64,000 nucleotides of DNA from Craspedostauros australis (Eukaryota > Bacillariophyta > Bacillariophyceae > Mastogloiales > Achnanthaceae). Each line of letters begins with the position of its first letter. Within the stretch, counting starts at the first letter, position 1. Below are positions 43,847-64,000 of this stretch, one piece after another. The translations under genes and the position numbers were made by a program. The notes below the pieces were generated by a model, which searched no databases, was not told the origin of the DNA, and saw only the letters and a list, made by a program, of their open reading frames with translations. The stretch is taken from assembly GCA_026770025.1 (NCBI GenBank), contig JAMXDE010000015.1, positions 1,240,001 through 1,304,000 on the forward strand. The letters are read 5' to 3'.

Positions 43847-44671
43847 TGTGTTGTTGGGACTAACGATGGCAGGGGGCGGTCGATTGGTGATGTGCGGCTT
43901 GTCTTTGGACACAACGGAGGAAGATGGTCGAGCAGGAGCTGTGATTGGAGCTATGATCAGAGCTGGAGTTGGTGTTCAAATGGAAGTCTGGATGCGAATG
44001 GGATGAAGACAGAATGCCCTCTTCTTGGAAGATGGCGAAGTGCGGCATCGATCATCGACGAATGGAGAGACAAGACGCGCGCCATGGATCAGGGCGCGGC
44101 GCGAACGACGCTGCAGAATCACGACACTGGAAACAGTCACCAACATCCACAGCGGCCGATGTCGTGGCAGATGTCGTGCGCCAAATGAAAGACAATTAAT
44201 CACATCATACGCCCTCGATCAAATGATAAAAGACCGAAAACCATCACGGACAGCGCGTTCCGCAAATGTTGTTAGCACTCTTGGGTTGATACAGGATGGA
44301 ACAACAACCCAAAGTGGCAATGGAGTGATACAAGCCACCGGTGCCACTATTCTGTATCATCGCCTTCACAACTACTCGTGCTCACGTACAAGCAGTGACG
44401 CACAAATCAACCGATAAATGACTCAGAAAGCCCTTTTGTGTTCGAATGATTCGTGGCACGATACGTGTATCATCTCCATGCAACTAAATGTGTATTAAGT
44501 CCATTTCCCTCGTCTCCTAGGAAGATGCCAACAATGACAGAATTCGTGTGTTGGAAGGCAACCCCATGCTCGATGCTGGAGAGCATGGCATTGTACCATA
44601 CGTACGAACACGAACTACAATATTATGCATCCTTGTGCAGATAACACGCACTCGCACGTCGCCTGCATATC
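43847..44671. other. Intergenic region
   Basis: Upstream side of the DUF6824 gene and 3' side of the SDR gene, both on the minus strand. Frames on both strands overlap and show no motif. Confidence 0.45.
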
Positions 44672-46947: not shown

Positions 46948-47581
46948 TGAGTCCTGGATACGTTTGTTGTCGATTGAAACACGAGTGGTGTCATCATCGT
47001 CATCATCGTCTCCACAAAACACGAGAACTGCCTCCGACATCCACCGACGAAGTCATCGTGGAGGATTCGTCACATTGTGGATCCGCCCATTGTGGTCGTT
47101 CGATGACATCCAACTGCCGAAGAACTGTATCGATCGGAGTAGTATCACGGTTGACTCCCCCAAGACCATCACAGAGGGATGTGCCTACTCAGATTACACA
47201 AACAATGGTATCACATGAAGAGGCACAACTGCACAGCGTGGCCAAGTTGGGCATCATCGAAAGTCGTATCGTGCGAGCGAGCGAGCGAGCTGGCCGGCTT
47301 CGGATCGTGATGTGGCTGTCCACGATCGTACCATGCCATGGTGGAACTGCGCAAGTCCATGAAGGCGTGTTGACTGACGACACGTTGCTTCATGATCAAT
47401 GCACAGGATCATGGAACGGAGGACAGCAAACTTCAGCAGATGAGCTCACAATCGACATCCAAGCTCAACTGATTTGGGACGACACACGCTACCAGCTCCA
47501 CTCGTACGATTGGACCACCACCAACAACAATCAGCAACAGGGACGACCACCAACAGCAACAACAGCGACAACAAGAAAAGG
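46948..47581 (+). repeat. Leader module 1
   Basis: Conserved sequence immediately upstream of LRR-like gene 1, shared with four other leaders. It contains GACTCCCCCAAGACCATCAC and a GAGCGAGCGAGC tract. The sequence before 46948 is not shared, so this is the left edge of the array. It probably carries the promoter and 5' untranslated region. A reading frame stays open across most of it but is not open in the other copies. Confidence 0.75.
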
Positions 47582-48865
47582 ATGACCCCCAACATGGATG
47601 CTGTCGCCAACACCAATACCAACAGCGATTCTGGTTCAGATTTCAAGACTTTCTGGAAACAGCTCCATGGAAAAGAGCTGTCACCGAAGATCGTGTTCAA
47701 TGTGCAGCGCCTACTAGCGAAGCGGATCGACTGCTACAGTGTCACACCCAAGCGGATGGAATACTGGGACATGGCCATCGAAGCGGGATTCACTTTTGAT
47801 GACTTGGAGTCGATGAAGCGGCAGCACAAGCACGTTGCATTATCACCTCATGTTCTACTGAGCAATTGGCTTCGCAGGGGCTGCGGGCGGATGAGCATTG
47901 GATCCCTGTATCTGGAATTCGGCACCATTGACCAATTCGGAGAAGAAGATAAGCGAGCGATTCGCTTCGTACTTCGATTGGCTGTCCAACACCCACCCGA
48001 GTCCACATCCGGCCGGGGTATCCGCTTGACTCAATGCTTCATGAAGATGAAACAGCTCCACGATATCCCTCTTGTGATGCATCATGTGCATTTGCATTCA
48101 TGTGATCTTGTTGGTTGCGACACGCTCATGTTCAACATCTCCCAAAACTCGAAATACGTTGAGTTTCGAAACTGTAAGCTTGCCGATGGGGGCGCTGATT
48201 TGTGCAGATGGCTGTCTCCAAACAATAGTCGCGTCACCGAAATATCATTTTTACGCAACTGTATCAGTTGCGATAGCTTGGCAAAGCTATTCCAGTCAAA
48301 CAAGCGCATCAACAAGCTCGACATCATGTTCTGTCGGGTCTACGACGGACAACACATCGACCAGATCATCAAGGTCCTTTCAGATGCATCACACCTGAGG
48401 GAGCTCAGGGTTTACGACAATTGGGACAGGTCATCGCGACAAGGGCAGACGGCAAGGTTCGACACTTTGGTATCGCTTCTGGGAAACAATGGCTTGTCAT
48501 CTCTCACATACTGTGACTTCTTGGATCCCGGCATGTTTGAGGTTCCGCCTGAGACCCTCTCGGCACAAATGGAAGCACTTCAGCAAGCCTTGGAGGAGAC
48601 TACCCAACTCACCTATCTCGACATTTATCCACTCCCGCCTGATGAACATGTCCATTTGTACAATGCGCTTGTTGAACGTATCTTGAAGCGAAATCATTGC
48701 AACAAGGTGAGAGCGGTGCTGCATTCCCTTCAGACATGGTCGCGGCCACTGGCCCTGTTTGGGAAGATGCTGACGACAAGAAGCCGGCGTTGGGGTCCAA
48801 TGGGTTCCACGAACGAGACTTTCCATCTTCTGTTGCAGTGCGGTGAGCTGTTGGAGCGGACATGA
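47582..48865 (+). CDS. LRR-like family protein, copy 1
   Basis: 427 residues from the ATG at 47582, chosen because it aligns with the ATG of the other three copies (MxxNM...NTNTN). Residues about 15-110 form the conserved N-terminal module (DFKTFWKQLHGKELSPK, CYSVTPKRMEYWDMAIEAGF, LSPHVLL). From about 165 to 390 the sequence has irregular leucine-rich repeats of the RNI type, such as ADLCRWLSPNN, EISFLRNCISCDSLAKLFQ, INKLDIMFCRV and LTYLDIYP. No signal peptide, membrane segment or nucleotide-binding motif is visible, so a soluble recognition or scaffold protein is likely. The family is not one I recognise. It differs from the others by a shorter central loop (DGQHIDQII). Confidence 0.83.
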   Translation: MTPNMDAVANTNTNSDSGSDFKTFWKQLHGKELSPKIVFNVQRLLAKRIDCYSVTPKRMEYWDMAIEAGFTFDDLESMKRQHKHVALSPHVLLSNWLRRGCGRMSIGSLYLEFGTIDQFGEEDKRAIRFVLRLAVQHPPESTSGRGIRLTQCFMKMKQLHDIPLVMHHVHLHSCDLVGCDTLMFNISQNSKYVEFRNCKLADGGADLCRWLSPNNSRVTEISFLRNCISCDSLAKLFQSNKRINKLDIMFCRVYDGQHIDQIIKVLSDASHLRELRVYDNWDRSSRQGQTARFDTLVSLLGNNGLSSLTYCDFLDPGMFEVPPETLSAQMEALQQALEETTQLTYLDIYPLPPDEHVHLYNALVERILKRNHCNKVRAVLHSLQTWSRPLALFGKMLTTRSRRWGPMGSTNETFHLLLQCGELLERT

Positions 48866-49124
48866 GATGACAAGAGAGCGGATCGGCTCGTCCGAGCTGA
48901 TGGTGCTTCTGCTTGCGGTGTGGAAAAGAAAGGCACATCGATGGTTGATGCGATCCTGCATTGCCTTGGAGTACTCTGGTCGTAGAGTAATTAGAACGGC
49001 TTATGAAGACAGGATTGATACTCTGGTGCATGTGAGTGTATTGTTGTACGAGTGGGATGGAACAAGGGAGATGGTGGGTGATTGTGATTGCGTGTTGTGG
49101 TTGGTGAGAAGTATGGAATGTCTA

Positions 49125-50033
49125 TTAACAGCAAACGAAAGCGTCCACGGAACCTATCTGCGCCACATCACGATGAAGAAGGACACATCCCGGAACTTGG
49201 CCAACGGCCCCAAGGAGGTCTCCAGATATCTCAGCAGACCAATCAGCCTTGGCTGTGGTGGTCGTGATGTCCATGATGCTCGTGATGGTGGACCATCGCT
49301 TGTCCTTGTATTCTGTCTGCAGAATATCTTCGAGGCTGTTCTCGCCATTGCCTTGTTCATCGCACTGCATATAGTATTGCCGAATGACGTTGACCATACA
49401 GTTGGCATCTTGGATGGCCTGATTGGCGCCCTGTCCCAGGAATGGTGGCATGGCGTGCGCCGCATCACCGCAGACAGTCAGGATGGCGACCTTGTCTGCG
49501 CCGGTGCTTCCATTGCGGTTGCAGTTGCGATTTCCGTTGATGGCCCTCATCGCCTTGGTCCATCGCGCAAAGGGATTGTGGAAGTAGATCCCCAACTCGA
49601 AGAAAGAATCGGCATTGTCCATGAGTCGATCGATGATGAGCCTTGTGGTGTGTGTGGGGATCTTGGCATCGTCGATCTGCTGTCACATCTGTTGCTGGAT
49701 GCGTTTGGCCTCGGATGATGCCTTCCAAGCGACGGTCTCGTCGTTGGTGTCGATGGCGTCAGTTTTGCTGACGGTCTCGAAATTTGCGCCAAGGAGAGAC
49801 CGGCGATGCCACCACCGATAACTGCGACCTTCCGTACTGGTTGGTGATTCTCATTCCCATTCCCATTGCTGCTTCGCTTCTGCTGCTTCACTTCTGCGTT
49901 GGAGTGAAGATGACGGGGATGGTGATGACAGTGTCTTCGTTGTCACCACCATGCACGCAATGTAGATGGCACCGATCATCCTCTTTTGATGCATCAACCA
50001 CGTCATTGGTGTCATTGATGCCAATGCCGCCAT
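49125..50033 (-). pseudogene. FAD-dependent monooxygenase pseudogene, unit 1
   Basis: Reading on the minus strand: an N-terminal hydrophobic segment (MIGAIYIACMVV), the FAD-binding motif KVAVIGGGIAGLSLA around 49790-49835, and the second FAD motif GDAAHAMPPFLGQGANQAIQDA around 49410-49475, with a C-terminal tail ending at 49125. In a normal group A flavoprotein monooxygenase about 250 or more residues separate the two motifs; here only about 110 codons do, so the substrate-binding middle is deleted. There are frame changes near 49780 and near 49860, and an in-frame TGA at 49683-49685. Transcribed away from LRR-like gene 2. Confidence 0.75.
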
Positions 50034-50314
50034 TGCTGTGATTCCTCTGGTTGCGGCTGTCTCTGTGGTTGCGCAATCATTGAGTGAGGAATCAAGTCAA
50101 CCAGCCGGCATTGTTCGAAGCCTCTCTCTCGAAGCAGAGAGGGAGAGACGGAGCATTGGCATGCTCTGTGAATAGATACTTGATGGCAACGGTGATCATC
50201 ATGTGAGCATTGCGGTTGTGACGATCTGCATCAGTATTCTACAGCGATGTCTGCAGCAGCACCACCACGGTCATCGTCATCGCCACAGATTTCGCAATGA
50301 TTGAGTGAGGCGAG
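50034..50314. repeat. Shared FAD/LRR divergent spacer, unit 2
   Basis: The stretch including ACGATCTGCATCAGTATTCT and CGCAATGATTGAGTGAGGCG also lies before leaders 3, 4 and 5. It separates the start of the FAD gene (or its remnant) from the leader and is a candidate bidirectional promoter. Confidence 0.6.
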
Positions 50315-50989
50315 ATGAGTCCTGGATACGTTTGTTGTGAATTGAAACACGAGTGGTGTCGCCATCGTCGCCATCATCGACCTCGCAACAAAACGTGAGA
50401 AACGCCTCTGATGTCCACTGAAGAAGTCATTGTGGTGGGTTCTTCACATCATGGAACTACCCATTACAGTCGTTCGATCACATCCAACTGCCGAAGTATG
50501 TATAGTATGTATTCATATGGCACAATGGTTGACTCCCCCAAGACCATCACAGAGGGATGTGCCTACTCAGATAACACAAACAATGGTATTGCATGAAGAG
50601 GCACAACTGCACAGCGTGGCCAAGTTGGGTATCATCAAAGGTCGTATCGTGCGAGCGGGCGAGCTAGGCAGCTTCGGATCATGATGTGAATATCCACGGT
50701 CGTATCATACCATACCACACCATACCACAACGCACCACAACGCACCACACCACACCATACACAGTGGTGGAACTGCGCAAGTCCATGAAGGCGTGTTGAC
50801 TGACGACACGTTGCTTCGTGATGAATGTACAGGATCATGGAATGGAGGACAGCAAACTTGAGCAGATGAGCTCACAATCGCCATCCAAGCGCAACTGATT
50901 TGGGACCACATACTCTGCCTGCTCTGCTGCTGTGCAACCAACACTATCGACAGCCCCCACCATAAACAGCATCGACAACACATAGCAGG
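50315..50989 (+). repeat. Leader module 2
   Basis: As leader 1, ending at the ATG of LRR-like gene 2. It has an expanded CCATA/CCACA-type tract at 50703-50765 that is almost absent in leader 1. Confidence 0.75.
50703..50765 (+). repeat. Pyrimidine-rich CCATA/CCACA microsatellite
   Basis: About 60 bases of imperfect 5-base units (CATAC, CACAC, CCACAACG). Equivalent but different-length tracts occur at about 55620-55650, 60412-60467 and 63914-63936; leader 1 has only a trace near 47330. Confidence 0.85.
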
Positions 50990-52360
50990 ATGGCTTTCAA
51001 CATGCATGGTGACGCCAACACCAATACCAACAGCGATCATGATCCAGACTTCAAGACTTTCTGGAAACAACTCCATGGAAAAGAGCTGTCACCGAAGACC
51101 CCATTCAACACGCAGTGCCCACACGTAGAGCAGGTCGACTGCTACAGTGTCACACCCAAGCGGATGGAATACTGGGACATGGCCATCGAAGCGGGATTCA
51201 CCTTTGCTGACTTGGAATCGACGATGAAGCGGCACAAGTACGTCGCTTTCTCACCTCATGTTCTACTGAGCGATTCGTTTCGCCAGGGCTACAAGCGGAT
51301 GCGTATTGGACCCTTGACTCTGGACTTCAGCAGCCAAGACCAATTCGGAGAAGAAGACAAGCAAGCGATTCGCTTCTTACTTCGATTGGCTGTCGAACAC
51401 CCACCCGAATCTTCATTCGACGAAGGCATCAGCTTGAATCAATGCTTCGTGAAGATGAAGCAGCTCCACGATATCCCTCTTGTGACACATCGTGTGGATT
51501 TGTGTTATTGTGATCTTGTTTATTGCGACAAATTCATGCTCAACATCTCTCAAAACTCGAAATGGGTTGTGTTATATAAGTGTCAGCTTGCCAATGGGGG
51601 CGCTGATTTGTGCAGATGGCTGTCTCCAAACAATTGCAGCGTCACCGAAGTATCCATTTTATTCACCCGTATCACTTGTGATAGCTTGGCAAAGCTATTT
51701 CAGTCAAACAAGCGCATCAACAAGCTCAACATCAGTTGGTTTTGGTTCTCCAACGAAGAATCCTACTTTCGACAAGAAATCGATCAGATCATCCAACTGC
51801 TTTCAGATGCATCACACCTGAAGAAGCTCAAAGTTTCCAATCATTGGTTTGGGTCACCGCCGCAAGAGCAGGATACAAGGCTCGATGCATTGATATCGCT
51901 CCTGGGAAACAAGAGCTTGTCATGTCTCACCTTCTCTGCCAGTGGTGCTCCCACCATGCCTGAGATTCCGCCTGAGATCCTCTCGGCACAAATGGAAGCA
52001 CTTCAGCAAGCCTTGGAGCAGACTACCCAACTCACCTATCTCCACATTTCTCCAAGCCTGCCCAACAAACATGACCATTGGTACGATGCACTTGTTGAAC
52101 GTACCTTGCGTCGAAATTATCGCACCAAGATGAGATCAATGCCGCGTTCCCTTCCAACATGGTCGCGACCACTGGCCCTGTTTGGGGAGGTGCTGATGAG
52201 AATAAGCAAACGTCAGAGTAGACTTGATCCAGTGGGTTCCACGAACGAGACTTTTCACATTCTGCTGCAGTGCAGTGACATGTTGAAACAGACATGGGAC
52301 GATCGTCGTGCCGATCGGCAACGACCAGACACAACAGAAGAAATAGCGCCGCAGCGATAA
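50990..52360 (+). CDS. LRR-like family protein, copy 2
   Basis: 456 residues from the ATG at 50990 (MAFNMHGDANTNTN). It has the same N-terminal module as copy 1, with CYSVTPKRMEYWDMAIEAGF unchanged and the segment just before it replaced. The LRR region keeps ADLCRWLSPNNCSVTE and DSLAKLFQSNKRINKLNIS, but the inserted loop is longer (WFWFSNEESYFRQEIDQ) and the strand facing it is changed (SILFTRITC). The C-terminus is extended by about 15 residues relative to copy 3, ending EEIAPQR. The frame is open with no frameshift. The next minus-strand neighbour is the broken tail-anchored gene, not the FAD pseudogene. Confidence 0.83.
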   Translation: MAFNMHGDANTNTNSDHDPDFKTFWKQLHGKELSPKTPFNTQCPHVEQVDCYSVTPKRMEYWDMAIEAGFTFADLESTMKRHKYVAFSPHVLLSDSFRQGYKRMRIGPLTLDFSSQDQFGEEDKQAIRFLLRLAVEHPPESSFDEGISLNQCFVKMKQLHDIPLVTHRVDLCYCDLVYCDKFMLNISQNSKWVVLYKCQLANGGADLCRWLSPNNCSVTEVSILFTRITCDSLAKLFQSNKRINKLNISWFWFSNEESYFRQEIDQIIQLLSDASHLKKLKVSNHWFGSPPQEQDTRLDALISLLGNKSLSCLTFSASGAPTMPEIPPEILSAQMEALQQALEQTTQLTYLHISPSLPNKHDHWYDALVERTLRRNYRTKMRSMPRSLPTWSRPLALFGEVLMRISKRQSRLDPVGSTNETFHILLQCSDMLKQTWDDRRADRQRPDTTEEIAPQR

Positions 52361-52775
52361 GATCATGGGCCTTCTGCCAGCGCAATGAAATTGGCAGCCA
52401 ACTGGCCACACTCGTGAAAGCGACGGAGCTTCTGATTGGCGCTCGGTGTTCACAAAACAAAGAAAGGTGTGTCGATGATTGATGCGGTACTGTATCACCT
52501 TAAACAACTGTAGGACAACTACTCTCGTCTATCTCCACTGACTGCAAGCGAGTCGAATATGTCCATGCCCGTGCGCGTTCCTGAAAGACTACAAAACTGA
52601 TGCATCTGCAATGACGAGAAACCACGCACCGTCAACACCAAACAAAGCAACGAGAGTCACGATGATACGATACTACTATTTGGGATACTCTATCTCCGGC
52701 GATCGGCATGCTTGACTTGCGGTCAACGAAAGTCAGAGGCGTCGGCAGCGAGAGTCGCAAAACAAAACTGATGTT
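52361..52775. repeat. 3' spacer of unit 2
   Basis: Between the LRR-like gene and the convergent tail-anchored pseudogene. Almost the same sequence follows copy 3 (57229-57641), with small indels. No coding signal. Confidence 0.6.
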
Positions 52776-54436
52776 TCAGCCAGCCAGCACGACGCCTGCT
52801 GCGATGCCACCACCCACGATAAGGACAGCCACGATGACGATGGGGACCATGTTGGTGCTTTTGTTCGATGCTGGTTCCTGCTGCAACGTCGGTGTGGTGG
52901 TGGTGGTGGTGGTGGTGGTCGTCTGTGCCTCAATGTCGACAGAATGCATGCTTGTGGTGTTGCCAGTGTCCTGCTCGACCACGTTGTTCAGATCGAGATG
53001 CTGGCTGGATCCCTTGGAGGGTCCGATGGATTCTTTTCGCGTGAGCTGCTTGACTGGTGGATCTTGATTGATGGTTTGCTCCGGATCAGTTGTGGGCATC
53101 ATGGGAGTGATGGATATTTCGATGGAGTTGGTGCGCGAGACGAGCTGGGTGGGCATGTCCTCGTTGGTGTCGTTGGTCTCGTTGAGGAGGATGGCGGAAT
53201 GAGTGGATTGGCTTTTGTCCAAAACCACTCCGGCTGAAGCGGAACTACCGCTCATGAGGCGGTTGGCGGATGTGGAGATGTACGTTGACGCTGGGTCTTT
53301 GGCGGAAGCTGGATCCTCACCATCCATGTCCATGTCCATGTCCATGTCCATGTCCACATTGCTGTGGTTGGATTCCTTGGAAAGGGAGTTGGTGGAGTCC
53401 TGGTTGCCATGATTGCTGGTCGATGAATTGGAGGTGGCGGCCGTGCGCTGGGTGCCGTCATTTTTTGGCGGAGACCATGGAGGAGAAGATCCCGGAATCC
53501 CCATTGGAATGGGCACCGAATTCGCCTGGCTTGCGTTTGTTGCCAGTTCTGGTGGACGGTCGCTCCGTCTCGTCGCCCTCCTCGCCTTCGACGACAGACT
53601 CCAGTCCACCTTCCTGGCGGATGGAGGACATCCTCTTGGCGGCGGAGAAGCCGAAGGACGAGATCCCCGTTGGAGGAGGCGTTGGGGCTGCCTCTGGCCA
53701 GCTGGGGCGTCCTGGCTGTCCTGGACGGCGCGGTGGTGGTGGTGTTGGGAGATGTTCCGATCGCACGTGGAGGCTGGTAGGATGTGGAACGGAATTCGTC
53801 ACGAAAGGAGTCGTCTCGCATGGAGTCGTCCTCGTCTGTGAACTCGTCGAAGCCTCCATCGGTCGTCTTGTCGGTCATCTTGTCGCCCGCCTCCTCATCG
53901 GAACACTGGCTCTCGATGTCGTCATCGTCATCATCGTCGATGATGTGGATGTCGTCATCTATCTGCTGCGTGTTGGCGCCGGCACCCGCGCTGACGTTGT
54001 GACTCTGGCTGTGACTCTGGCTGCGACTGCGGCTGTTGGCGTCGGCACCCTCATCGTCGTCGCTGTTGTCGCTGTCAATGTCGTCGTCCAGGCCTTCGTC
54101 CAAGCCTTCGTCGAAGGGCTCCTCGTCGCTGTCCACCACCCTCGCACTGATGGAGTCAATCATGTCGGCGTCGAAGTCCTGCTGCGAGTGCATGGAGAAC
54201 TCTGCCTCATTTTCATCGCTGTACACGGTCTGCTGCTTGCTGCCCAGGTCGTTCATGTACTTGGAGGTGTAGGCGGAGCTGTAGCCGGTGGGCGATGATG
54301 CTGCCGATGACGACATGGAGCTTGGTGATGGCGCAGAGTTGCGGCCGTACTGGTGGCCGGTCTTGCGTTCAATGCCGGACGTGGAGGAGGACGACCGTGA
54401 AGCCTTGCTGGTGAATGGGAATCTGTTGTCTTCCAT
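52776..54436 (-). pseudogene. Broken copy of the tail-anchored Ser/Asp-rich gene
   Basis: Starts at the ATG at 54436 (MEDNRFPFTSKASRSSSSTS) and matches the intact gene at 57642-59267 throughout. Two single-base insertions relative to the intact copy disrupt it: one near 53663 (AGATCCCC against AGCCCCC) and one in a T run near 53461-53466 (six T against five). The 5' frame therefore leaves the parental frame at the first, and the C-terminal half, including the tail anchor MVPIVIVAVLIVGGG, is out of frame with the start. The C-terminal (ACC)n run is longer than in the intact copy. Little else has changed, so the loss looks recent. A sequencing error in either homopolymer should be excluded. Confidence 0.75.
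53322..53356. repeat. (CCATGT)n hexanucleotide tract
   Basis: About six units, encoding an Asp-Met alternation on the minus strand. The paralogous tract at about 58181-58218 has a variant unit (CTGTGT) and a different length. Confidence 0.85.
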
Positions 54437-54499
54437 CGATTTGTGTTGCCTTCTGTTGCCTTGTATTGTGTTGTTTTGGGAATGATCTGCTCTCTTGCT

Positions 54500-54660
54500 T
54501 CGTTCAATCGTTCAATCGTTCAATCGCACAATGATCGATGGTCAATGTTGAATGTTGAATGTTGAATGGACGGCCTATTGCGACTAACGTAATTGCTGAT
54601 GGCGCAGTATCCAGTATCCGATGTCCAATGTCCAATGTCGAGTGGTTCTACTCTCCCTCT
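54500..54660. repeat. Short tandem minisatellites upstream of the broken gene
   Basis: CGTTCAAT units at about 54506-54528, TGTTGAA units at about 54545-54566 and CCAATGT units at about 54625-54640. The same motifs with other copy numbers precede the intact gene at about 59345-59475. Confidence 0.7.
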
Positions 54661-54769
54661 CTGTGCAGGGATCATATTGAGGCAATGGGCTGATGCGATG
54701 CGATACAACACTGTGGTTGATGTTGATGATGGTCTCGTTGCTGCGATTGTTGCGCCTGCCAGAGGAAAT

Positions 54770-54911
54770 GGCCGTCGGTGGTTCTCAATCCACGACGGAA
54801 GAAAAGTGTCGGGGATGATGATGACAGTGAGTCCGTTGCCACCAACATGCACGCGATGCAGATGGCGCCAATCATCCTCTTTTGATGCATCAACGATGTC
54901 ATTGCTGCCAA
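54770..54911 (-). pseudogene. 5' remnant of the FAD monooxygenase gene, unit 2
   Basis: The first about 40 codons of the FAD gene are recognisable (MAAMTSLMHQKRMIGAICIA, then LVATDSLSSSS), and a match continues at nucleotide level to about the ENH segment. After that the sequence is unrelated and neither FAD motif is present. It marks where the tail-anchored gene replaced the rest of the FAD gene. Confidence 0.65.
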
Positions 54912-55207
54912 TGCTGCCGTTGCTGTGATTCTTCTGGTTGTGGCTGTCTCTGTGGTTGGGCGATCAATGAGTTAGGAACCAAGTCAACCAGCCGGCATTG
55001 TTCGAAGTCTATCTCCAGAAACAGAGAGAAACGAGAGAGGGAATGTTGGTATCGTACTCTGAGGATAGACGCTTGATGGTGACAGTGATCATAATGTGAG
55101 TGTTGCGGTTGTGACGATCTGCGTCAGTATTCTGCAGCGATGTCTGCAGAAGCACCACCACGGTCATCGTCATCGCCGCAGGGTTCGCAATGATTGAGTG
55201 AGGCGAG

Positions 55208-55878
55208 ATGAGTCCTGGATACGTTTGTTGACGATTGAAACACGAGTGGTGTCACCATCGTCATCAGCGTCACCATCCTCTCGACAAAACGTGAGAAACG
55301 CCTCCGATGTCCACCGATGAAGTCATCGCTGTGGATCCGTCACATCGTGGTGGATTCTTCGCATTGCGGATCCGCCCATTGCGGTCGTTCGATGACATCC
55401 AACTGCCGAAGTACATAGAATAGTATGCATTCGTATGGCATAATGGTTGACTCCCCCAAGACCATCACAGAGGGATGTGCCTACTCATATTACACAAGCT
55501 ATGGTATCACACGAAGAGGCGCAACCGCACAGCACGGCCAAGTTGGGCACCATCGAAAGTCGTATCGTGTGAGCGAGCGAGCCAGCTAGCTTCGGATCAT
55601 GATGTGAACATCCACAGTCGTACCATACCACGCCACGCAACGCCATACACCTTGGTGGAACTGCGCAAGTCCATGAAGGCGTGTTGACTGATGGTAGATC
55701 CCTTCATGATGAATGCACAGGATCATGAAATGGAGGACAGCAAACTTGAGCAGATGAGCTCATAATCGCCATCCAAGCGCAACTGATTTGGGACCACATA
55801 CTCTGCCTGCTCTATCAGCTGTGCAACCAACACTATCGACAACCCCCACAATAACCAGCATCGACAACACATAGCAAG
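55208..55878 (+). repeat. Leader module 3
   Basis: Ends at the ATG of LRR-like gene 3. It carries a short duplicated CACATCGTGGTGGATTC-like insert near 55340-55370, also seen in leader 5 but not in leaders 1 and 4. Confidence 0.75.
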
Positions 55879-57228
55879 ATGGCTTTCAACATGGATGGTG
55901 TCACCAACACCAATACCAACAGCCATCATGATCCAAACTTCAAGACTTTCTGGAAACAACTCCATGGAAAATGGTGGATCCCGAAGACCGTGTTCACTCC
56001 GTGGTATCCACGAGCAGAGCAGATCGATTGCTACAGTGTCACACCCAAGCGGATGGAATACTGGGGCATGGCCATCGAAGCAGGATTCACCTTTGCTGAC
56101 TTGGAATCGATGATGAAGCGGCACAAGCACATTGCTTTATCACCCCATGTTCTGCTGAGAAATTGGAATCACTGGGACTGCGGACTGATGAGTATTGGAT
56201 CCCTGAAACTGGAATTCGGCAGCCATGACCAATTCGGAGAAGAAGACAAGCAAGTGGTTCGCTTCGTACTTCGATTGGCTGCCAAACACCCACCCAAAGC
56301 TTGGTTCGACCAATTAATCTACTTGCCTCAATGCTTCGTGAAGATGAAGCAGCTCCACGATATCCCTCTTGTGTCACGTCGTGTGGATTTGTATTTTTGT
56401 GATCTTGTTGATTGCGACAAGCTCATGTTCAACATCTCCCACAACTCAAAATACGTTGAGTTTCGTTTATGTAAGCTCGCCAATGGGGGCGCTGATTTGT
56501 GCAGATGGCTGTCTCCAAACAGTTGCAGCATCACCGAAGTATCCTTCCCAAACTCCACTATCACTTGCGATGGCATGGCCAAGCTATTCCAGTCAACCAA
56601 GTGCATCAACAAACTCCACATCGACTTCGGTCTGGTCCACAGCGCCCGACGAATCCACTCAAAACAAGAAATCGACCAGGTCATCCAACTCCTTTCAGAT
56701 GCATCACACCTGAAGAAGCTCACGATTTCCAATGTTTGGAGCGGATCATCGGAACCAGATCAGAATGCAAGGTTCGACACTTTGATATCGCTTCTGGGAA
56801 ACAAGAGCTTGTCATCTCTCACATACTCGGACTTCTTGCATCCCGACAGGTTTGAGGTTCCGCCCGAGATCTCCTCGGCACAAATGGAAGCACTTGAGCA
56901 AGCCTTGGAGGAGACTACCCACCTCATCTATCTCGACATTTATCCACGCCTGCCTGGCGAACATGCCCATTGGTACGATGCGTTTGTCGAACCTATCTTG
57001 CGGCGAAATCATCGCAACAAGATGAGAGCAGTGTTGTGTTCCCTTCCGACATGGTCGCGACCACTGGCCCTGTTTGGGAAGATGCTGATGAGAACAAACA
57101 AACGTGGGGGTACAATGGGTCCAATGGGTTCCATGAACAAGACTTTTAACATCCTGCTACAGTGCAGTGAGATGTTGAAACAGACATGGGACGATCGTCG
57201 TGCCGATGAGCAACGGCAGAAGAAATAG
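55879..57228 (+). CDS. LRR-like family protein, copy 3
   Basis: 449 residues from the ATG at 55879 (MAFNMDGVTNTNTN). The N-terminal module is kept except that KELSPK is replaced by KWWIPK, and the variable stretch reads VFTPWYPRAEQID. The LRR part retains CDLVDCDKLMFNIS and ADLCRWLSPNSCSITE; the variable loop is GLVHSARRIHSKQEIDQ. It ends DEQRQKK. It is most like copy 2 in its start and tail, in agreement with units 2 and 3 being the same type. The frame is intact. Confidence 0.83.
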   Translation: MAFNMDGVTNTNTNSHHDPNFKTFWKQLHGKWWIPKTVFTPWYPRAEQIDCYSVTPKRMEYWGMAIEAGFTFADLESMMKRHKHIALSPHVLLRNWNHWDCGLMSIGSLKLEFGSHDQFGEEDKQVVRFVLRLAAKHPPKAWFDQLIYLPQCFVKMKQLHDIPLVSRRVDLYFCDLVDCDKLMFNISHNSKYVEFRLCKLANGGADLCRWLSPNSCSITEVSFPNSTITCDGMAKLFQSTKCINKLHIDFGLVHSARRIHSKQEIDQVIQLLSDASHLKKLTISNVWSGSSEPDQNARFDTLISLLGNKSLSSLTYSDFLHPDRFEVPPEISSAQMEALEQALEETTHLIYLDIYPRLPGEHAHWYDAFVEPILRRNHRNKMRAVLCSLPTWSRPLALFGKMLMRTNKRGGTMGPMGSMNKTFNILLQCSEMLKQTWDDRRADEQRQKK

Positions 57229-57641
57229 CGCCGCAGTGATAAGATCATGGGTCTTCAATGAAATTGGGAGCCAACTGGCCACACTCGTGAAAGCGACGGA
57301 GCTTCTGATTGGTGTTCACAAAGCAAGGAAAGGTGTATCGATGATTGATGCGATACTGTATCACCTTAAACAACTGTAGGACAACTACTCTCATCCAACT
57401 CCACTGACTGCAAGCAAATCGAGTATGTCCATGCCAGTGCTCGTTCCTGCGAAGACCACAAAACTGCAATGACGAGAAACGACATAGCGTCAACACCAAA
57501 CAAAGCAGAGAGAGTCACGATGATACTATAATACGATACTACTATTTGGGATACTCTATCTCCGACGATCGGCATGCTTGACTTGCGGTCAACGAAAGTC
57601 AGAGGCGTCAGCAGCGAGAGTCGCAAAACAAAACTGATGTT
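57229..57641. repeat. 3' spacer of unit 3
   Basis: Copy of the 52361-52775 spacer, between convergent genes. No coding signal. Confidence 0.6.
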
Positions 57642-59267
57642 TCAGCCCACCAGCACGACGCCTGCTGCGATGCCACCACCCACGATAAGGACAGCCACGA
57701 TGACGATGGGGACCATGTTGGTGTTTTTGTTCGGTGCTGGTTCCTGCAACGTCGGCTTTGTGGTGGTGTTGGTGGTCGTCTGTGCCTCAATGTCGACAGA
57801 ATGTATGCTTGTGGTGTTGCCGGTGTCCTGCTTGACCACGTTCTTCGAATCGAGATGCTTGCTGGATCCCTTGGAGGGTCCGATGGATTCTTTTCGCGTG
57901 AGCTGCTTGACTGGTGGATCTTGATTGATGGTTTGCTCCGGATCAGTTGTGGGAATCATGGGAGTGATGGATATTTCGATGGAGTTGGTGCGCGAGACGA
58001 GCTGGGTGGGCATGTCCTCGTTGGTGTCGTTGGTCTCGTTGAGGAGGATGGCGGAATGAGTGGATTGGCTTTTGTCCAAGACCACTCCGGCTGAAGCGGA
58101 ACTGCCGCTCATGAGACGGTTGGCGGATGTGGAGATGTAGGTTGACGTTGGGTCTTTGGCGGAAGCTGGATCCTCACCATCCATGTCTGTGTCCATGTCC
58201 ATGTCCATGTCCATGTCCACATTGCTGTGGTTGGATTCCTTGGAAAGGGAGTTGGTGGAGTCCTGGTTGCCATGATTGCTGGTCGATGAATTGGAGGTGG
58301 CGGCCGTGCGCTGGGTGCCGTCGTTTTTGGCGGAGACCATGGAGGAGAAGATCTCGGAATCCCTATTGGAATGGGCACCGAATTCGCCTGGCTTGCGTTT
58401 GTTGACAGTTCTGGTGGATGGTCGCTCCGTCTCGTCGCCCTCCTCGCCTTCGACGACTGGCTCCAGTCCACCTTCCTGGCGGATGGAGGACATCCTCTTG
58501 GCGGCGGAGAAGCCGAAGGACGAGCCCCCGTTGGAGGAGGCGTTGGGGCTGCCTCTGGCCAGCTGGGGCGTCCTGGCTGTCCTGGACGGCGCGGTGGTGG
58601 TGGTGGTGGGAGATGTCCCGATCGGGCGTGGGCGCTGGTCGGATGTGGAACGGAATTCGTCACGAAAGGAGTCGTCTCGCATGGAGTCGTCCTCGTCTGT
58701 GAACTCGTCGAAGCCTCCATCGGTCATCTTGTCGCCCGCCTCCTCATCAGAACACTGGCTCTCGATGTCATCATCATCATCGTCGATGATGTGGATGTCG
58801 TCGTCTATCTGCTGCGTGTTGGCGCCGGCATCCGCGCTGACGTTGTGACTCTGGCTGTGGCTGCGACTGCGGCTGTTGGCGTCGGCACCCTCATCGTCGT
58901 CGCTGTTGTCGCTGTCAATGTCGTCGTCCAGGCCTTCGTCGAAGGGCTCCTCGTCGCTGTCCACCACCCTCCTCGCGCTGATGGAGTCCACCATTTCGGC
59001 GTCGAAGTCCTGCTGCGAGTGCATGGAGAACTCTGCCTCATTGTCATCGCCGTACACGGTCTGCTGCTTGCCGCCCAGGTCGTCCATGTACTTGGAGGTG
59101 TAGGCGGAGGCGTAGCCGGTGGGCGATGATGCTGCCGATGACGACATGGAGCTTGGTGATGGCGCAGAGTTGCGGCCGTACTGGTGGCCGGTCTTGCGTC
59201 CAATGCCGGACGTGGAGGAGGACGACCGTGAAGCCTTGCTGGTGAACGGGAATCTGTTGTCTTCCAT
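57642..59267 (-). CDS. Tail-anchored Ser/Asp-rich protein, intact copy
   Basis: 541 residues from the ATG at 59267; the frame is open further upstream but without an ATG. The N-terminus is Ser-rich and basic, followed by a strongly acidic region at about 95-230 (EEPFDEGLDDDIDSD, DIHIIDDDDDDIE). Then come Ser/Thr/Asn-rich sequence with an Asp-Met alternation and a single hydrophobic segment at the very end (MVPIVIVAVLIVGGGIAAGV), leaving almost no residues after it. This is a tail-anchored layout with the disordered part in the cytosol. No enzyme motif or known family is recognised. Arg-Ser/His-Ser pairs (NSRSRSHSQSH) and many Ser-Pro sites suggest phosphorylation. It is convergent with LRR-like gene 3, and only in this unit type. 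Confidence 0.75.
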   Translation of the reverse strand: MEDNRFPFTSKASRSSSSTSGIGRKTGHQYGRNSAPSPSSMSSSAASSPTGYASAYTSKYMDDLGGKQQTVYGDDNEAEFSMHSQQDFDAEMVDSISARRVVDSDEEPFDEGLDDDIDSDNSDDDEGADANSRSRSHSQSHNVSADAGANTQQIDDDIHIIDDDDDDIESQCSDEEAGDKMTDGGFDEFTDEDDSMRDDSFRDEFRSTSDQRPRPIGTSPTTTTTAPSRTARTPQLARGSPNASSNGGSSFGFSAAKRMSSIRQEGGLEPVVEGEEGDETERPSTRTVNKRKPGEFGAHSNRDSEIFSSMVSAKNDGTQRTAATSNSSTSNHGNQDSTNSLSKESNHSNVDMDMDMDMDTDMDGEDPASAKDPTSTYISTSANRLMSGSSASAGVVLDKSQSTHSAILLNETNDTNEDMPTQLVSRTNSIEISITPMIPTTDPEQTINQDPPVKQLTRKESIGPSKGSSKHLDSKNVVKQDTGNTTSIHSVDIEAQTTTNTTTKPTLQEPAPNKNTNMVPIVIVAVLIVGGGIAAGVVLVG

Positions 59268-59619
59268 CGATTTGTGTTGTCTTCTGTTGTCTTGTGTTGG
59301 GTTGGGTTGTGTTGTTTTGGGAATGATCCGCTCTGTTGCTTCGTTCAATCCTCCAATCGTTCAATCGTTCAATCGTTCAATGATCGATGCTCAATGTTGA
59401 ATGGACGGCCTATTGCGACTAACGTAATTGCTGATGGCGCAGTGTCCAGTATCCGATGTCCAATGTCCAATGTCGAGTGGTTCTACTCTCTCCCTCTCTC
59501 CAGTGATTATTGAGGCAATGGGGTGATGCGATGCGATACAACACTGTGGTTGATGTTGATGATGGTCTCGTTGCTGCGATTGTTGAGCCTGTCAAAGGAA
59601 ATGGCCGTCGGTGGTTCTC

Positions 59620-59745
59620 AATCCACGACAGAAGAAAAGTGTCGGGGATGGTGATGACAGTGAGTCCGTTGCCACCAACATGCACGCGATGCAGATGGCA
59701 CCAATCATCCTCTTTCGATGCATCAACGATGCTATTGCTGCCGTT
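59620..59745 (-). pseudogene. 5' remnant of the FAD monooxygenase gene, unit 3
   Basis: Same remnant as at 54770-54911: the start segment on the minus strand (ATGCATCGAAAGAGGATGAT) followed by the TDSL-like Ser stretch and the ENHRR segment, then loss of similarity. No FAD motif. Confidence 0.6.
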
Positions 59746-60043
59746 GCTGCCACTGTTGTGATTCTTCTGGTTGTGGCTGTCTCTGTGGTTGGGCGATCAA
59801 TGAGTGAGGAACCAAGTCAACCAGCCGGCATCGTTCGAAGTCTCTCTCCAGAAACAGAGAGAAACAAGAGAGAGAGTGTTGGTATCGTACTCTGTGGATA
59901 GACACTTGATGGCAACGGTGATCATCATCTGAGCGTTGCGGTTGTGACGATCTGCATCAGTATTCTGCAGCGATGTCTGCAGCACCACCACCACCATCGT
60001 CATCGTCATCATCACAGAGTTCGCAATGATTGAGTGAGGCGAG

Positions 60044-60686
60044 ATGAGTCCTGGATACGTTGGTTGTCGATTGAAACACGAGTGGTGTCATCATCGCCAT
60101 CATCCTCCCAACAAAACACGAGAATCACCTCTGATGTCCACCGAAGAAATCATCGTGGAGGATTCGTCACATTGCGGATCCGCCCATTGCGGTCGTTCGA
60201 TGACATCCAACTGCCGAAGAACTGTATCGATCGGAGTGGTATCGCGGCTGACTCCCCCAAGATCATCACAGAAGGATGTACTCATATTACAAACTATGGT
60301 ATCACATGAAGAGGGACAACTGCACAGCGTGGCCAAGTTGGGCACCATCGAAGGTCGTATCGTGCGAGCGAGCGAACGATCTTCGGATCGTGATGTGGCT
60401 GTCCACGATCGTACCATGCCATACCACACCGAACCATACCATACCATATCACACCACACCATACGCCATGGTGAAACTGCGCAAGTCCATGAAGGCATGT
60501 TGGCTGACGGCACGTTGCTTCGTGATGAATGCACAGGATCATGAAATGGAAGACAGCAAACTTGAGCAGATGAGCTCATAATCGCCATCCAAGCGCAACT
60601 GATTTGGGACCACATACTCTGCCTGCTCTACTCGTACGATTGTACCACCAACAACAATCAGCAACGACAACGACGACAAGAAAAGG
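60044..60686 (+). repeat. Leader module 4
   Basis: Ends at the ATG of LRR-like gene 4. It lacks the duplicated insert of leader 3 and has a CCATA/CCACA tract at about 60412-60467. Confidence 0.75.
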
Positions 60687-62084
60687 ATGAGCCGCACCAT
60701 GTATGGTGATGCCAACACCAACACCAACAGCTACCATGATCCAGACTTCAAGACTTTCTGGAAACAGCTCCATGGCAAAGAGCTGTCACCGAAGACCATG
60801 TTCAATGTGCAGAGTCATCCAAGACAGCAGATCCACTGCTACAGTGTCACACCCAAGCGGATGGAACACTGGGACATGGCCATGGAAGCAGGATTCACTT
60901 TTGATGACTTGAAATCGATGCAGCGGCGGCACGATCACGTTGCTTTATCACCTCGTGTTCTACTGAGCGGTTCGTTTCGCAGGGGCCGAGGGCGGATGTA
61001 TATTGGATCCCTACATCTGGAATTCGGCACCATTGAACAATTCGGAGAAGAAGACAAGCAAGTGATTCGCTTCGTACTTCGATTGGCTACCGAACACCCA
61101 TCCAAATCTTCATCTGACGAAGGCATCCGCTTGACTCAATCCTTCGTGAAGATGAAGCAACTCCACGATATCCCTCTTGTGACACAATATGTGGAGTTGG
61201 ATTCGTGTGATCTTGTTGATTGCGACAAGCTCATGTTCAACATCTCCCAGAACTCGAAATACGTTGAGTTTCGAAACTGTAAGCTCGCCGATGGGGGCGC
61301 TGATTTGTGCAGATGGCTGTCTCCAAACAATTGCAGAGTCACCGAAGTATCATTTTTATGCACCCGTATCACTTGTGATAGCTTGGCAAAGCTACTCCAG
61401 TCAAACAAGCGCATCAACAAGCTCAACATCAGTTTCTGTCGGGTCCACAGCGACCAACAATTCTCCTCACAACAAGAAATCGATCAGATCATCCAACTTC
61501 TTTCAAATGCATCGCACCCGAAGGAGCTTTGGGTTTTCGGTATTTGGGAAGGGTCATCGCGACAAGAGCAGATGATGATATTCGACCCTTTGATATCGCT
61601 TCTGGGGAACAAGAACTTGTCATCTCTCACATACGAGATCGGTGGGAAGCCCAGCATGTTCGAGATTCCGCCCAAGATCCTCTCGGCACAAATGGAAGCA
61701 CTTCAGCAAGCCTTGGAGGAGACTACCCAACTCACCTATCTCGACATTTATCCACGCCTGCCTGACAAACATGCCCATTGGTACAATGCACTTGTTAAAC
61801 GTATCTTCTGGCGAAATCATCGCAACAAGGTGAGAGCCGTGCTGGGTTCCCTTCCGACATGGTCGCGACCACTGGCCCTGTTTGGGGAGATGCTGACGAG
61901 AACAAGAAAACGTCGGGGTAGAATGAATGCAATGGGTAGAATGAATCGCAGGAGCGAGACTTTCCATCTCCTGTTGCAGGGCAGTGACATGTTGAAACAG
62001 GCGTGGGATGACAAAAGAGCGGGTCAGCTCGTCCAAGTTGATGGTGCTTCTGCCCGCATTGTGAAAAGAACGGTACATACATGA
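60687..62084 (+). CDS. LRR-like family protein, copy 4
   Basis: 465 residues from the ATG at 60687 (MSRTMYGDANTNTN). The N-terminal module and the segments ADLCRWLSPNNCRVTE and DSLAKLLQSNKRINKLNIS are conserved; the variable loop is HSDQQFSSQQEIDQ. The C-terminus is longer (QLVQVDGASARIVKRTVHT) because the stop present in copy 1 after about 48863 is absent here. It resembles copy 1 in the LRR region (YVEFRNCKLADGGADLC) and in its 3' flank, so units 1 and 4 belong together. The downstream neighbour is the FAD pseudogene. Confidence 0.83.
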   Translation: MSRTMYGDANTNTNSYHDPDFKTFWKQLHGKELSPKTMFNVQSHPRQQIHCYSVTPKRMEHWDMAMEAGFTFDDLKSMQRRHDHVALSPRVLLSGSFRRGRGRMYIGSLHLEFGTIEQFGEEDKQVIRFVLRLATEHPSKSSSDEGIRLTQSFVKMKQLHDIPLVTQYVELDSCDLVDCDKLMFNISQNSKYVEFRNCKLADGGADLCRWLSPNNCRVTEVSFLCTRITCDSLAKLLQSNKRINKLNISFCRVHSDQQFSSQQEIDQIIQLLSNASHPKELWVFGIWEGSSRQEQMMIFDPLISLLGNKNLSSLTYEIGGKPSMFEIPPKILSAQMEALQQALEETTQLTYLDIYPRLPDKHAHWYNALVKRIFWRNHRNKVRAVLGSLPTWSRPLALFGEMLTRTRKRRGRMNAMGRMNRRSETFHLLLQGSDMLKQAWDDKRAGQLVQVDGASARIVKRTVHT

Positions 62085-62361
62085 TTGATGCGATCCTGGA
62101 TGGCCTTCGACAACTCTGGTCGTCGAGTAATTAGAACAGCGCATGGAGACGGGATTGATACTCTGGTCCATGTGAGTGTGTTGTTGTACGAGTGAGATGG
62201 AACAAGGGAGATGGTTGGGTGATTGTAATTGCGTGCGGTAATTGGCGAGTAGAAGGGAATGTCTAGATTGTATGAGTATGGCTGGTCCATCAACAGCAAG
62301 CGAAAGCTGTCCACAGAACCTATCTGCATCACATCGCGATTTCACACCGCTCCGCACATTC

Positions 62362-63225
62362 TCATATTCTTAGAACAGCAGCATCCAGAACGGTCTTCTT
62401 CGCAACGCCTGTCTTGTCCATCATGAAGAAGGACACACCCCAGAACTTGGCCAACGGTCCCAACGAGGCCTCCAGGCACCCCAGTAATCCAGCCTTGGCC
62501 GTGACACCTGTGATGTCCATGATGCTCGTGGTGGTAGGCCATCGCTTGTCCTTGTATTCTATCTGCAGGATGTCTTTGAGGCTGTTGCCACCATTGGCTT
62601 GTTCACCATGCTGCATGGTATGCTGCTGAATGGCGTTGGCCAGGCAGTAGGCGTCTTGGATGGCCTGATTGGTGCCCTGTCCAAGGAACAGAGGCATGGC
62701 GTGCGCCTCATCACCGCAGACAGTCAGGACGGCGACCTTTTCTGCGCTGGTGCTTCCATTGCGGTTGCGGTTGCGATTTGTGTTGGTGGCCACCATCGCC
62801 TTGGTCCATCACGCAAAGGGCTTGTGGAAGTAGATCTCCAACTCGAAGAAACGATCGGCACTGTCGATGATAGGCCTTGTGGTGTGCATGGGGATCTTGG
62901 CATCGTCGATCTGCTGTCACATCTGTTGCTGGATACGCTCGGCCTCGGATCATGCCTTCCAAGCGACGTTGTTGTCGTTGGTGTCGTTATTGCTGTTGTT
63001 CTCGAAAGCATGCGCCAAGGAGAGACCGGCGATGCCACCACCGATGACTGCGATCTTCCGCCTTGGTTGGTGATTCTCATTCCCGTTGCGACTGATGCTG
63101 CTGCTGCGTTGGAGTGAGGATGACGGGGATGATGATGACAGTGAGTCCGTTGCCACCACCATGCACGCGATGCAGATGGCACCAATCATCCTCTTTTGAT
63201 GCATCAACGATGCCATTGCTGCCAT
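62362..63225 (-). pseudogene. FAD-dependent monooxygenase pseudogene, unit 4
   Basis: One frame runs from MAAMASLMHQKRMIGA at 63225 through the FAD motif KIAVIGGGIAGLSLAHAFE (about 63020-63070) to GDEAHAMPLFLGQGTNQAIQDA (about 62665-62730) and a tail ending at 62362. Three in-frame TGA codons interrupt it, at 62950-62952, 62917-62919 and 62809-62811; the second is also present in unit 1. The middle region of a normal monooxygenase is missing, as in unit 1, so deletion and at least one stop predate the duplication of the two units. The N-terminal hydrophobic segment suggests the ancestral enzyme was membrane-bound or secreted. Confidence 0.75.
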
Positions 63226-63501
63226 TGCTGTGATTCTTCTGGTTGTGGCTGTCTCTGTGGTTGGGCGATCAATGAATGAGGAATCAAGTCAACCAGCCGG
63301 CATCGTTCGAAGTCTCTCAAGAAGCAGAGAGGGAGAGTATTGGTATGTTCTGTGGATGGACACTTGATGGTGACAGTGATCATCATGTGAGCGTTGCGGT
63401 TGTGACGATCTGTCTCAGTATTCTGCAGAGATGTCTGCAGCACCACCACCACCATCGTCATCGTCATCATCACAGAGTTCGCAATGATTGAGCGAGGCGA
63501 G
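63226..63501. repeat. Shared FAD/LRR divergent spacer, unit 5
   Basis: Same spacer as at 50034-50314, between the FAD pseudogene start and leader 5. Confidence 0.6.
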
Positions 63502-64000
63502 ATGAGTCCTGGATACGTTTGTTGTCGATTGAAACGCGAATGGTGTCACCATCGTCATCGCCATCACCCTCTCGACAAAACGTGAGAAACGCCTCCGATG
63601 TCCACCAAAGAAGTCATCGTTGTGGATCTGTCACATCGTGGTGGATTCTTCGCATCGTGGAGAATTCGTCACATTGCGGATCCACCCATTGCGGTCGTTC
63701 GATGACATCCAACTGCCGAAGAACTGTATCGATCGGAGTAGTATCACGGTTGACTCCCCCAAGACCATCACAGAGGGATGTACTCATATTACAAACTATG
63801 GTATCACATGAAGAGGGACAACTGCACAGCGTGGCCAAGTTGGGCACCATCGAAGGTCGTATCATGTGAGCGAGCGAGCCAGCTTCGGATCGTGATGTGC
63901 CTGTCCACGGTCGTACCATACCATATCATACCATCGCACAGGATGTCATACACTGTGGTGGAACTGCGCAAGTCCATGCAGGCATGTTGACTGACGACAC
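63502..64000 (+). repeat. Leader module 5, cut by the window edge
   Basis: Follows the other leaders base for base with small indels up to TTGACTGACGACAC at the right edge. In the other units this point lies about 140-180 bases before the LRR-like ATG, so a fifth gene is expected just outside. Confidence 0.75.

What the first reader, a model, noticed from the sequence alone, without database searches (positions are those of the whole stretch)
46948..64000. Undescribed tandem array of LRR-like genes with alternating partner genes
Four intact LRR-like paralogues, each behind a conserved leader, alternate in the order FAD pseudogene, tail-anchored gene, tail-anchored gene, FAD pseudogene. The LRR frame is intact in all four while the partner genes decay, so selection appears to act on the LRR proteins. 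Such arrays are typical of recognition or self/non-self families. This is the best candidate for a new system in the window.
Basis: partly seen in the sequence, partly recalled or inferred. Interest (0 to 1): 0.75.

Follow-up and report, generated by a model that had tools for sequence, protein, structure and literature searches.

The report
Diatom LRR gene arrays under diversifying selection
A single-celled alga (a diatom) carries roughly ninety copies of a horseshoe-shaped binding protein whose likely binding face changes its amino acids faster than neutral drift while the scaffold is preserved, as in disease-resistance genes of plants, which suggests that diatoms hold their own large repertoire of recognition proteins.

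Summary
The array is real and one of many. The window lies in a diatom genome (silicon transporters). It holds four intact LRR-like genes behind a shared ~690-bp leader; a fifth follows beyond the window. One search lists 91 single-frame copies on 17 contigs; add seven broken ones. AlphaFold predicts an RI-type LRR fold (pLDDT 67).

Whole-gene dN/dS is near 1 (0.76-1.06 locally). This is not neutrality: on the copies' own tree neutral evolution predicts 7.5 stops per copy and almost no intact copy, yet 72 of 74 have no stop before alignment column 450. The signal follows the fold: at exposed residues of the LRR strands, nonsynonymous diversity is 2.12 times the gene's synonymous diversity (CI 1.72-2.56), at buried residues 0.37. 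This count needs no tree; copies recombine so much that my single-tree site test failed its control.

The partners are passengers: an FAD monooxygenase gene, broken in all 16 copies read in arrays (one intact on C18), and a tail-anchored gene mostly found inside its remnant.

Best reading: a recognition repertoire, probably for non-self, without NB-ARC or membrane anchor. Ligand and immune role are inferred.

The parts
46941..47581 (+). Leader of LRR copy 1 (shared upstream region)
   Evidence: self-alignment; leader alignment of 26 copies; genome search
47582..48865 (+). LRR copy 1, 427 aa
49164..50015 (-). FAD_binding_3 (PF01494) pseudogene, frame breaks, internal deletion from about residue 82 to 347
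50309..50989 (+). Leader of LRR copy 2
50990..52360 (+). LRR copy 2, 456 aa
52779..54481 (-). TA gene copy with two frame breaks
54714..54893 (-). FAD N-terminal remnant (residues 7-54, 45% identity) upstream of the TA gene
55202..55878 (+). Leader of LRR copy 3
55879..57228 (+). LRR copy 3, 449 aa
57642..59348 (-). TA gene, uninterrupted 568-codon frame (first ATG at codon 28), hydrophobic C-terminal segment
59643..59726 (-). FAD N-terminal remnant (residues 7-34)
60038..60686 (+). Leader of LRR copy 4
60687..62084 (+). LRR copy 4, 465 aa; modelled protein. LRR strands at residues 168-172, 192-196, 220-224, 245-251, 280-286, 313-319, 351-355
62365..63225 (-). FAD pseudogene, residues 1-75 joined to 355-547, with stops
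63498..64000 (+). Leader of a fifth LRR copy, whose ORF begins beyond the window at C13:1304204

Best explanation
A diatom gene family of about 90 soluble LRR proteins that works as a diversifying recognition repertoire. Each unit is a shared leader (promoter and 5' UTR, inferred) plus one single-exon LRR ORF. Units multiplied by tandem and segmental duplication and exchange short tracts by gene conversion or recombination (shown by pattern). The protein folds as an RI-type LRR horseshoe (predicted). Selection keeps the scaffold and favours amino-acid change at the exposed residues of the LRR beta strands, the usual ligand face (shown as a pattern). The most likely use is direct binding of many changing protein ligands inside the cell, most plausibly from viruses, bacteria or eukaryotic parasites; the N-terminal region, of unknown fold, would couple binding to an output (inferred). 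The FAD gene is a hitch-hiker that has mostly decayed, and the TA gene later landed or arose inside it and was copied along (order inferred from nesting).
For: 91 single-frame copies, plus broken ones. Neutral simulation expects 7.46 stops per copy and 0.035 of 74 intact (maximum 2 in 200 runs); observed 72 of 74 without a stop before column 450. Divergence at codon positions 1/2/3 is 0.183/0.157/0.153, so third positions are not the most variable. Tree-free piN/piS in 63 distinct copies: exposed strand residues 2.12 (CI 1.72-2.56, 21 codons), buried 0.37 (0.25-0.50, 14 codons), rest 0.78 (390 codons). Offset profile over seven strands: -1 1.28, 0 0.25, +1 2.31, +2 0.46, +3 2.82, +4 2.34; 0 of 20,000 random placements reach the observed value. 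Each of the seven strands agrees singly (exposed 1.61-2.79, buried 0.19-0.47), two further strands alternate alike, and 1947 of 1953 pairs have exposed piN above gene piS. The same counting on the partners gives ratios below 1 (FAD 0.58, 16 copies; TA 0.55, 9 copies). LRR fold. Linkage decays within about 50 bp, and copies on different contigs that are 15-16% divergent share identical tracts of 139-141 bp. No hydrophobic segment in the four window copies (max KD 0.83-1.05).
Against: No expression, ligand, population or phenotype data. The model has modest confidence (pLDDT 66.6, four sequences) and no Pfam LRR model passes its cut-off. Single-tree site tests look strong (85 of 425 sites) but neutral data simulated with recombination gave 51-85 such sites in three runs, so they are not proof. 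The strand anchors, and the two further strands, were chosen after the model and a first site list had been seen. Diversification could serve mating, self-recognition or genetic conflict rather than defence. The N-terminal region has no recognisable fold or signalling domain. favours single-frame copies, so 72 of 74 overstates intactness; seven further loci are broken and one is cut by a contig end.
Confidence: 0.6

Rival explanations
1. Self-recognition or mating: the LRR proteins mark or read mating partners or kin, and their diversity is maintained by sexual or allorecognition selection.
For: The pattern of selection does not tell the ligand. In Pseudo-nitzschia multistriata, two mating-type-biased genes encode LRR proteins, and two LRR receptor-like kinases regulated in the sexual phase have Ka:Ks above 1 (passages of PMC6261938, and PMC5485032).
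Against: The two mating-type-biased LRR proteins have a transmembrane region; here no hydrophobic segment was found. About 90 copies dispersed over 17 contigs fit a repertoire better than a mating-type locus (inference).
Confidence: 0.18
2. Genetic conflict: the units are selfish or antidote-like genes, for example meiotic drive or toxin-antidote families, whose diversification follows an internal arms race.
For: Spread over 17 contigs, a recent exact tandem triplet on C9, frequent decay of neighbours.
Against: The focus of change on exposed strand residues of an otherwise kept scaffold suggests ligand binding; nothing toxin-like was recognised in the unit. No test of segregation was possible.
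Confidence: 0.1
3. Substrate-adaptor family: the LRR proteins are adaptors of a ubiquitin ligase or similar machine (F-box-LRR-like), diversified in many targets, with or without an immune role.
For: SKP2 and FBXL17 LRR domains are among the structural matches.
Against: No F-box or other adaptor domain by Pfam in six copies, and no fold match for the N-terminal part; absence of a match is not exclusion.
Confidence: 0.15
4. Relaxed or neutral family: copies drift, and intact frames reflect recent expansion and homogenisation.
For: Whole-gene dN/dS near 1. Some broken copies exist.
Against: Median divergence about 16% with almost no stops against an expected 7.5 per copy; exposed/buried contrast 2.12 versus 0.37.
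Confidence: 0.03

Closest known systems
Plant NBS-LRR resistance gene clusters (for example coffee SH3-CNL, PMC3113787)
   Same: Tandem clusters, gene conversion between paralogues, and strong evidence for Ka/Ks above 1 only at x residues of xxLxLxx (passages read).
   Different: No NB-ARC, CC or TIR domain found; only two NB-ARC matches in the whole genome, neither in these arrays; LRR of the RI type, alone; a unicellular alga.
Brown algal LRR-ROCO candidate immune receptors (PMC11378527)
   Same: Stramenopile family with LRRs under diversifying selection, reported at LRR positions 14, 16, 18 and 19 (passages read).
   Different: Those diversify by shuffling one-repeat exons within a gene that also has ROC-COR; here whole single-ORF genes diversify by duplication and exchange, and no ROC-COR domain was found.
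Diatom LRR expansions (Seminavis robusta, PMC7335047; Nitzschia putrida, PMC9054022)
   Same: [quoted passage not shown] putrida (passages read).
   Different: Selection on the LRR face was not in the passages read; the N. putrida proteins are secreted. Homology with this family was not tested.
Animal NLR LRR domains and ribonuclease inhibitor (NLRP3, NLRP9, NOD2, RNH1)
   Different: 12-18% identity, no NACHT; fold likeness only, shared with axonemal LRR proteins, SKP2 and others.

Membership tests
LRR proteins, RI type (beta-alpha repeats) | Repeating beta strand plus helix units forming a horseshoe | tested here: met
   [not shown]
LRR proteins, RI type (beta-alpha repeats) | Match to a Pfam LRR model above its cut-off | tested here: not met
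   Six copies scanned; LRR_R13L1-DRL21 in two of them at E 0.59 and 0.076, 10.5 and 13.4 bits, cut-off 27.
R-gene-like recognition families | Excess nonsynonymous change at exposed LRR strand residues, constraint at buried ones | tested here: met
   2.12 versus 0.37, offset profile, each strand singly.
R-gene-like recognition families | Clustered paralogues with sequence exchange | tested here: met
   Arrays; LD decay, 0 of 1000 permutations as extreme; long identical tracts.
R-gene-like recognition families | Role in resistance to a pathogen | not testable with these tools
   No expression, infection or genetic data.
NLR (NB-ARC or NACHT LRR) | Nucleotide-binding domain fused to the LRR | tested here: not met
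   No such domain in the proteins scanned; NB-ARC has 2 matches in the genome, C37:60946 and C5:676926, outside the arrays.
LRR receptor-like kinases and transmembrane LRR proteins | Transmembrane segment | tested here: not met
   Maximum 19-residue Kyte-Doolittle mean 0.83-1.05 in the four window copies.
FAD_binding_3 monooxygenases (partner gene) | PF01494 match above cut-off | tested here: met
   Intact copy L079:979-2622, 547 aa: PF01494 48 bits, cut-off 22; NCBIfam hydroxylase subfamilies match below their cut-offs. Window copies pass on fragments but are broken.
F-box-LRR adaptors | F-box N-terminal to the LRR | tested here: inconclusive
   No Pfam match and no fold match for the N-terminal model of modest confidence.

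The most novel reading that the evidence does not exclude
A unicellular diatom keeps a germline repertoire of some ninety NB-ARC-free cytosolic LRR receptors that is shuffled between chromosomes by short-tract exchange and diversified on its ligand face, that is, an R-gene-like immune system built from bare LRR proteins and aimed at viruses or parasites of phytoplankton.
Probability: 0.4. Interest if true: 0.88.

Novelty: new variant of a known kind. Interest (0 to 1): 0.74.

Why it matters
To my knowledge (recalled, and nothing contrary in the listings) recognition repertoires of diatoms are little known, although viruses, bacteria and parasites act on diatom blooms. A family of about 90 members with the same evolutionary signature as plant resistance genes gives a concrete list of candidate receptors and candidate contact residues, and makes strain-specific resistance or partner recognition in diatoms directly testable. 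It would also be a further independent case of LRR ligand faces recruited for recognition, without the nucleotide-binding engine used by plants and animals.

Tried and rejected
Whole-gene dN/dS as proof: it is near 1 and uninformative. Single-tree site test: 85 positive and 70 negative of 425 sites. Four tree-only simulations (three at omega 1, one at 1.07) gave none at the same threshold, but three neutral simulations with shuffled 20-codon blocks gave 71, 51 and 85 positive and 53, 35 and 22 negative, against 78 and 72 for the real data by the same procedure. I dropped the site counts as evidence and used tree-free diversity. The site list is used only for position: 15 of 21 exposed strand sites against 64 of 404 elsewhere, after dropping six low-rate sites (79 of 85 kept). 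Enrichment of negative sites at buried residues was not significant (4 of 14, p 0.26) and depletion of positive ones borderline (0 of 14, p 0.08). One of 418 rigid shifts exceeded the observed value (0.403 against 0.394); by the offset profile that fits the shift by two, again exposed residues.

Survivor bias: one search misses frame-shifted copies. Of four partner loci without a listed LRR gene, two held frame-broken LRR genes, one a C-terminal piece, one nothing. Searches list these and more: seven further broken loci in all (C43 near 7-8, 11.6 and 16.3 kb, C74:139.7 kb, C35:667 and 671 kb, the piece at C35:472.8 kb) and one cut by the end of C13. In the nine fetched array pieces 26 of 29 LRR copies are full-length and stop-free to column 450 (exceptions: C39 split, C14 cut short, C13_1844640 with a stop), against 0 of 16 FAD copies of 100 codons or more, judged from frames and stops (FAD and TA stretches under 55% identity were left out of the counting). 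One intact FAD gene was found, on C18.

Relatives elsewhere: none by short patterns plus tblastn in viral contigs or prokaryote genomes, none in PDB sequences, no Rfam family in window 44000-64000. N-terminal part alone: best Foldseek E 0.97. Within the genome, diverged relatives at C35:618148 (46%), C25:255316 (39%), C8:1035353 (37%, broken) and C2:77399 (29%) were not read.
Full report
What was checked. The window is C13:1240001-1304000 of a 74.8-Mb genome of 90 contigs. I take it for a diatom: silicon transporters, PF03842, give 88 matches in the genome, and a DUF6824 and an HA-domain protein lie in the window (that these are frequent in diatoms is recalled). The species is unknown to me.

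Scale. The fourth window protein finds 91 single-frame matches on 17 contigs: C4, C5, C9, C13, C14, C17, C18, C35, C38, C39, C40, C43, C45, C50, C51, C68 and C74, mostly in arrays with a spacing of about 3.4-5 kb (128 candidates, 91 scored, so a lower bound). C9 holds three units whose LRR ORFs are identical, exactly 4488 bp apart. I fetched 79 of the 91; the other 12 were left out, several of them with scores equal to a fetched copy. The leader search gave 42 rows from 40 scored of 125 candidates, again a lower bound.

Unit anatomy. Across 26 copies (28 less two identical), homology upstream of the ATG extends about 690 bp and then stops sharply: median distances per 100 columns are 0.07-0.31 inside it and 0.38-0.65 further up. 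Downstream, homology weakens soon after the ORF. On the opposite strand, tail to tail, lies an FAD_binding_3 gene. One copy on C18 is an uninterrupted 547-codon gene; the 16 copies of 100 codons or more in the fetched array pieces are all broken by stops, frame changes or deletions. In one search (116 rows, many of them pieces of one copy) only the C9 triplet and the C18 copy match end to end without a stop, and the C9 triplet changes frame near residue 205 of the whole protein. A TA gene follows the LRR gene in a subset of units. Of the nine TA units in the fetched pieces, seven have a clear FAD N-terminal remnant upstream, one a weak one (29% identity) and one none found; two on C43 have one. 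So the ancestral unit was most likely leader-LRR plus FAD, and TA a later nested replacement that was copied along. From FAD remnant or start to the next leader it is 272-311 bp in the window, so LRR and partner could share a divergent promoter region (inference).

Frames are selected. For 74 copies (79 less three short and two identical ones) and 425 codons, a neutral simulation on the inferred tree expects 7.46 stops per copy and 0.035 of 74 intact copies (200 runs, maximum 2). Observed: two of 74 with a stop before column 450. Nearly all other in-frame stops in the 79 fall at columns 452-471, most at 454, an alternative C-terminal end. favours intact copies, so I looked for broken ones: of four partner loci without a listed LRR gene, two hold frame-broken LRR genes, one a C-terminal piece, one nothing, and bring the broken extra loci to seven, plus one cut by a contig end. 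With C39 split and two copies with body stops, about ten of roughly 99 loci are broken by my reading of those tables. That is far from the neutral expectation and from the FAD neighbours.

Selection pattern. Whole-gene ratios are 0.76-1.06 among the ten pairs of the five local copies, median 0.78 over pairs of 39 copies, 0.89 by one codon model for 36 copies (kappa reported as 1.000; its second model printed no ratio) and 1.07 by my own codon model for 74. The leader diverges about as much as the ORF. Copies exchange sequence: linkage falls from r2 0.088 within 10 bp to about 0.02 beyond 250 bp, with 0 of 1000 permutations as extreme (61 copies, 102 sites); copies on different contigs that are 15-16% divergent share identical tracts of 141 and 139 bp, where 20 column shuffles reached at most 97; and divergence within arrays equals that between them (0.163 and 0.166). 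Single-tree site tests are therefore unsafe, as my own control showed. Counting over pairs needs no tree. In 63 copies differing pairwise at more than 12% of codons, exposed strand residues (-1, +1, +3 around the first buried residue of seven strands) have piN 0.394 against gene piS 0.186, ratio 2.12 (1.72-2.56); buried residues 0.37 (0.25-0.50); all other codons 0.78 (0.67-0.90). The offset profile is the xxLxLxx pattern. It holds in each of the seven strands singly and in 1947 of 1953 pairs, pairs not being independent. Two strands that were not in the definition alternate alike, fully at 147 and less fully at 109, where offset -1 is only 0.62. The four window copies alone give 0.30 exposed, 0.08 buried, 0.17 rest, against piS 0.18. 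Caveat: all anchors, the two extra ones included, were set after seeing the model and a first site list. The partner genes, counted alike, give 0.58 (FAD) and 0.55 (TA), so the method does not inflate ratios by itself.

How it most likely works. Shown: an expanded family, open frames under selection, diversification on strand residues that in LRR proteins face the ligand, exchange between copies. Predicted: the fold. Inferred: that the ligands are many and changing, that they are proteins of viruses, bacteria or parasites, and that binding triggers a response. Confidence that this is a diversifying recognition family is about 0.85; that its main role is defence about 0.5; the combined statement is given 0.6 because the mechanism leaves the ligand open.

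Comparison with print. The listings of searches (20 of 27 shown; 20 of 33 shown) showed no title that describes such a family in diatoms; only passages of six papers were read (PMC5485032, PMC6261938, PMC9054022, PMC7335047, PMC11378527, PMC3113787). By those passages Seminavis has LRR tandem duplicates, N. putrida secreted LRR proteins, Pseudo-nitzschia transmembrane LRR proteins biased to mating types, brown algae LRR-ROCO proteins with four positively selected LRR positions, and coffee an NBS-LRR cluster with gene conversion and positive selection seen only at xxLxLxx residues. The present family evolves like the last two but is not an NLR (NB-ARC not found) nor a transmembrane receptor. 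Hence: new variant of a known kind.

Limits.

Noticed in passing
G000 genome-wide, e.g. C2:977655-1028778, C61, C11, C9: Silicon transporter family PF03842 has 88 rows; 28 cover the model nearly end to end without a stop, 25 of them at almost equal scores of 811-831 bits: an unusually large expansion, cause not examined.
   Followed up: no
window 44672-45910 and C13:1306812-1307443, 1309801-1310417: The short-chain dehydrogenase gene before the array has diverged paralogues (about 75% DNA identity) just after it, as if the array lay within a tandem SDR cluster.
   Followed up: partly
window 20944-24948 and 29763-33635: Two large proteins (1334 and 1290 aa) that look closely similar by eye lie in tandem; the first matches AAA_16, and a purple acid phosphatase-like gene lies between them.
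   Followed up: no
G000 C9:1674135, 1678623, 1683111: Three LRR units with identical LRR ORFs exactly 4488 bp apart: very recent amplification or an assembly artefact.
   Followed up: partly
G000 C13:1832915-1852262 and C35:638994-666427; C4:3358191-3359129 and C74:141250-142189: Matching series of LRR, FAD and TA matches, many with equal scores, near contig ends: segmental duplication or leftover alternative haplotypes.
   Followed up: no
G000 C5:2126873-2131075: A 1400-codon open frame that looks like a Copia-type retrotransposon polyprotein (by eye, not tested) interrupts the C5 array.
   Followed up: no
G000 C25:255316-256488 and C35:617401-618567: Diverged relatives of the LRR family (39% and 46% over the N-terminal part) with open frames of 612 and 502 aa; the C25 gene lies outside the listed arrays and may be close to the ancestral form.
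   Followed up: no
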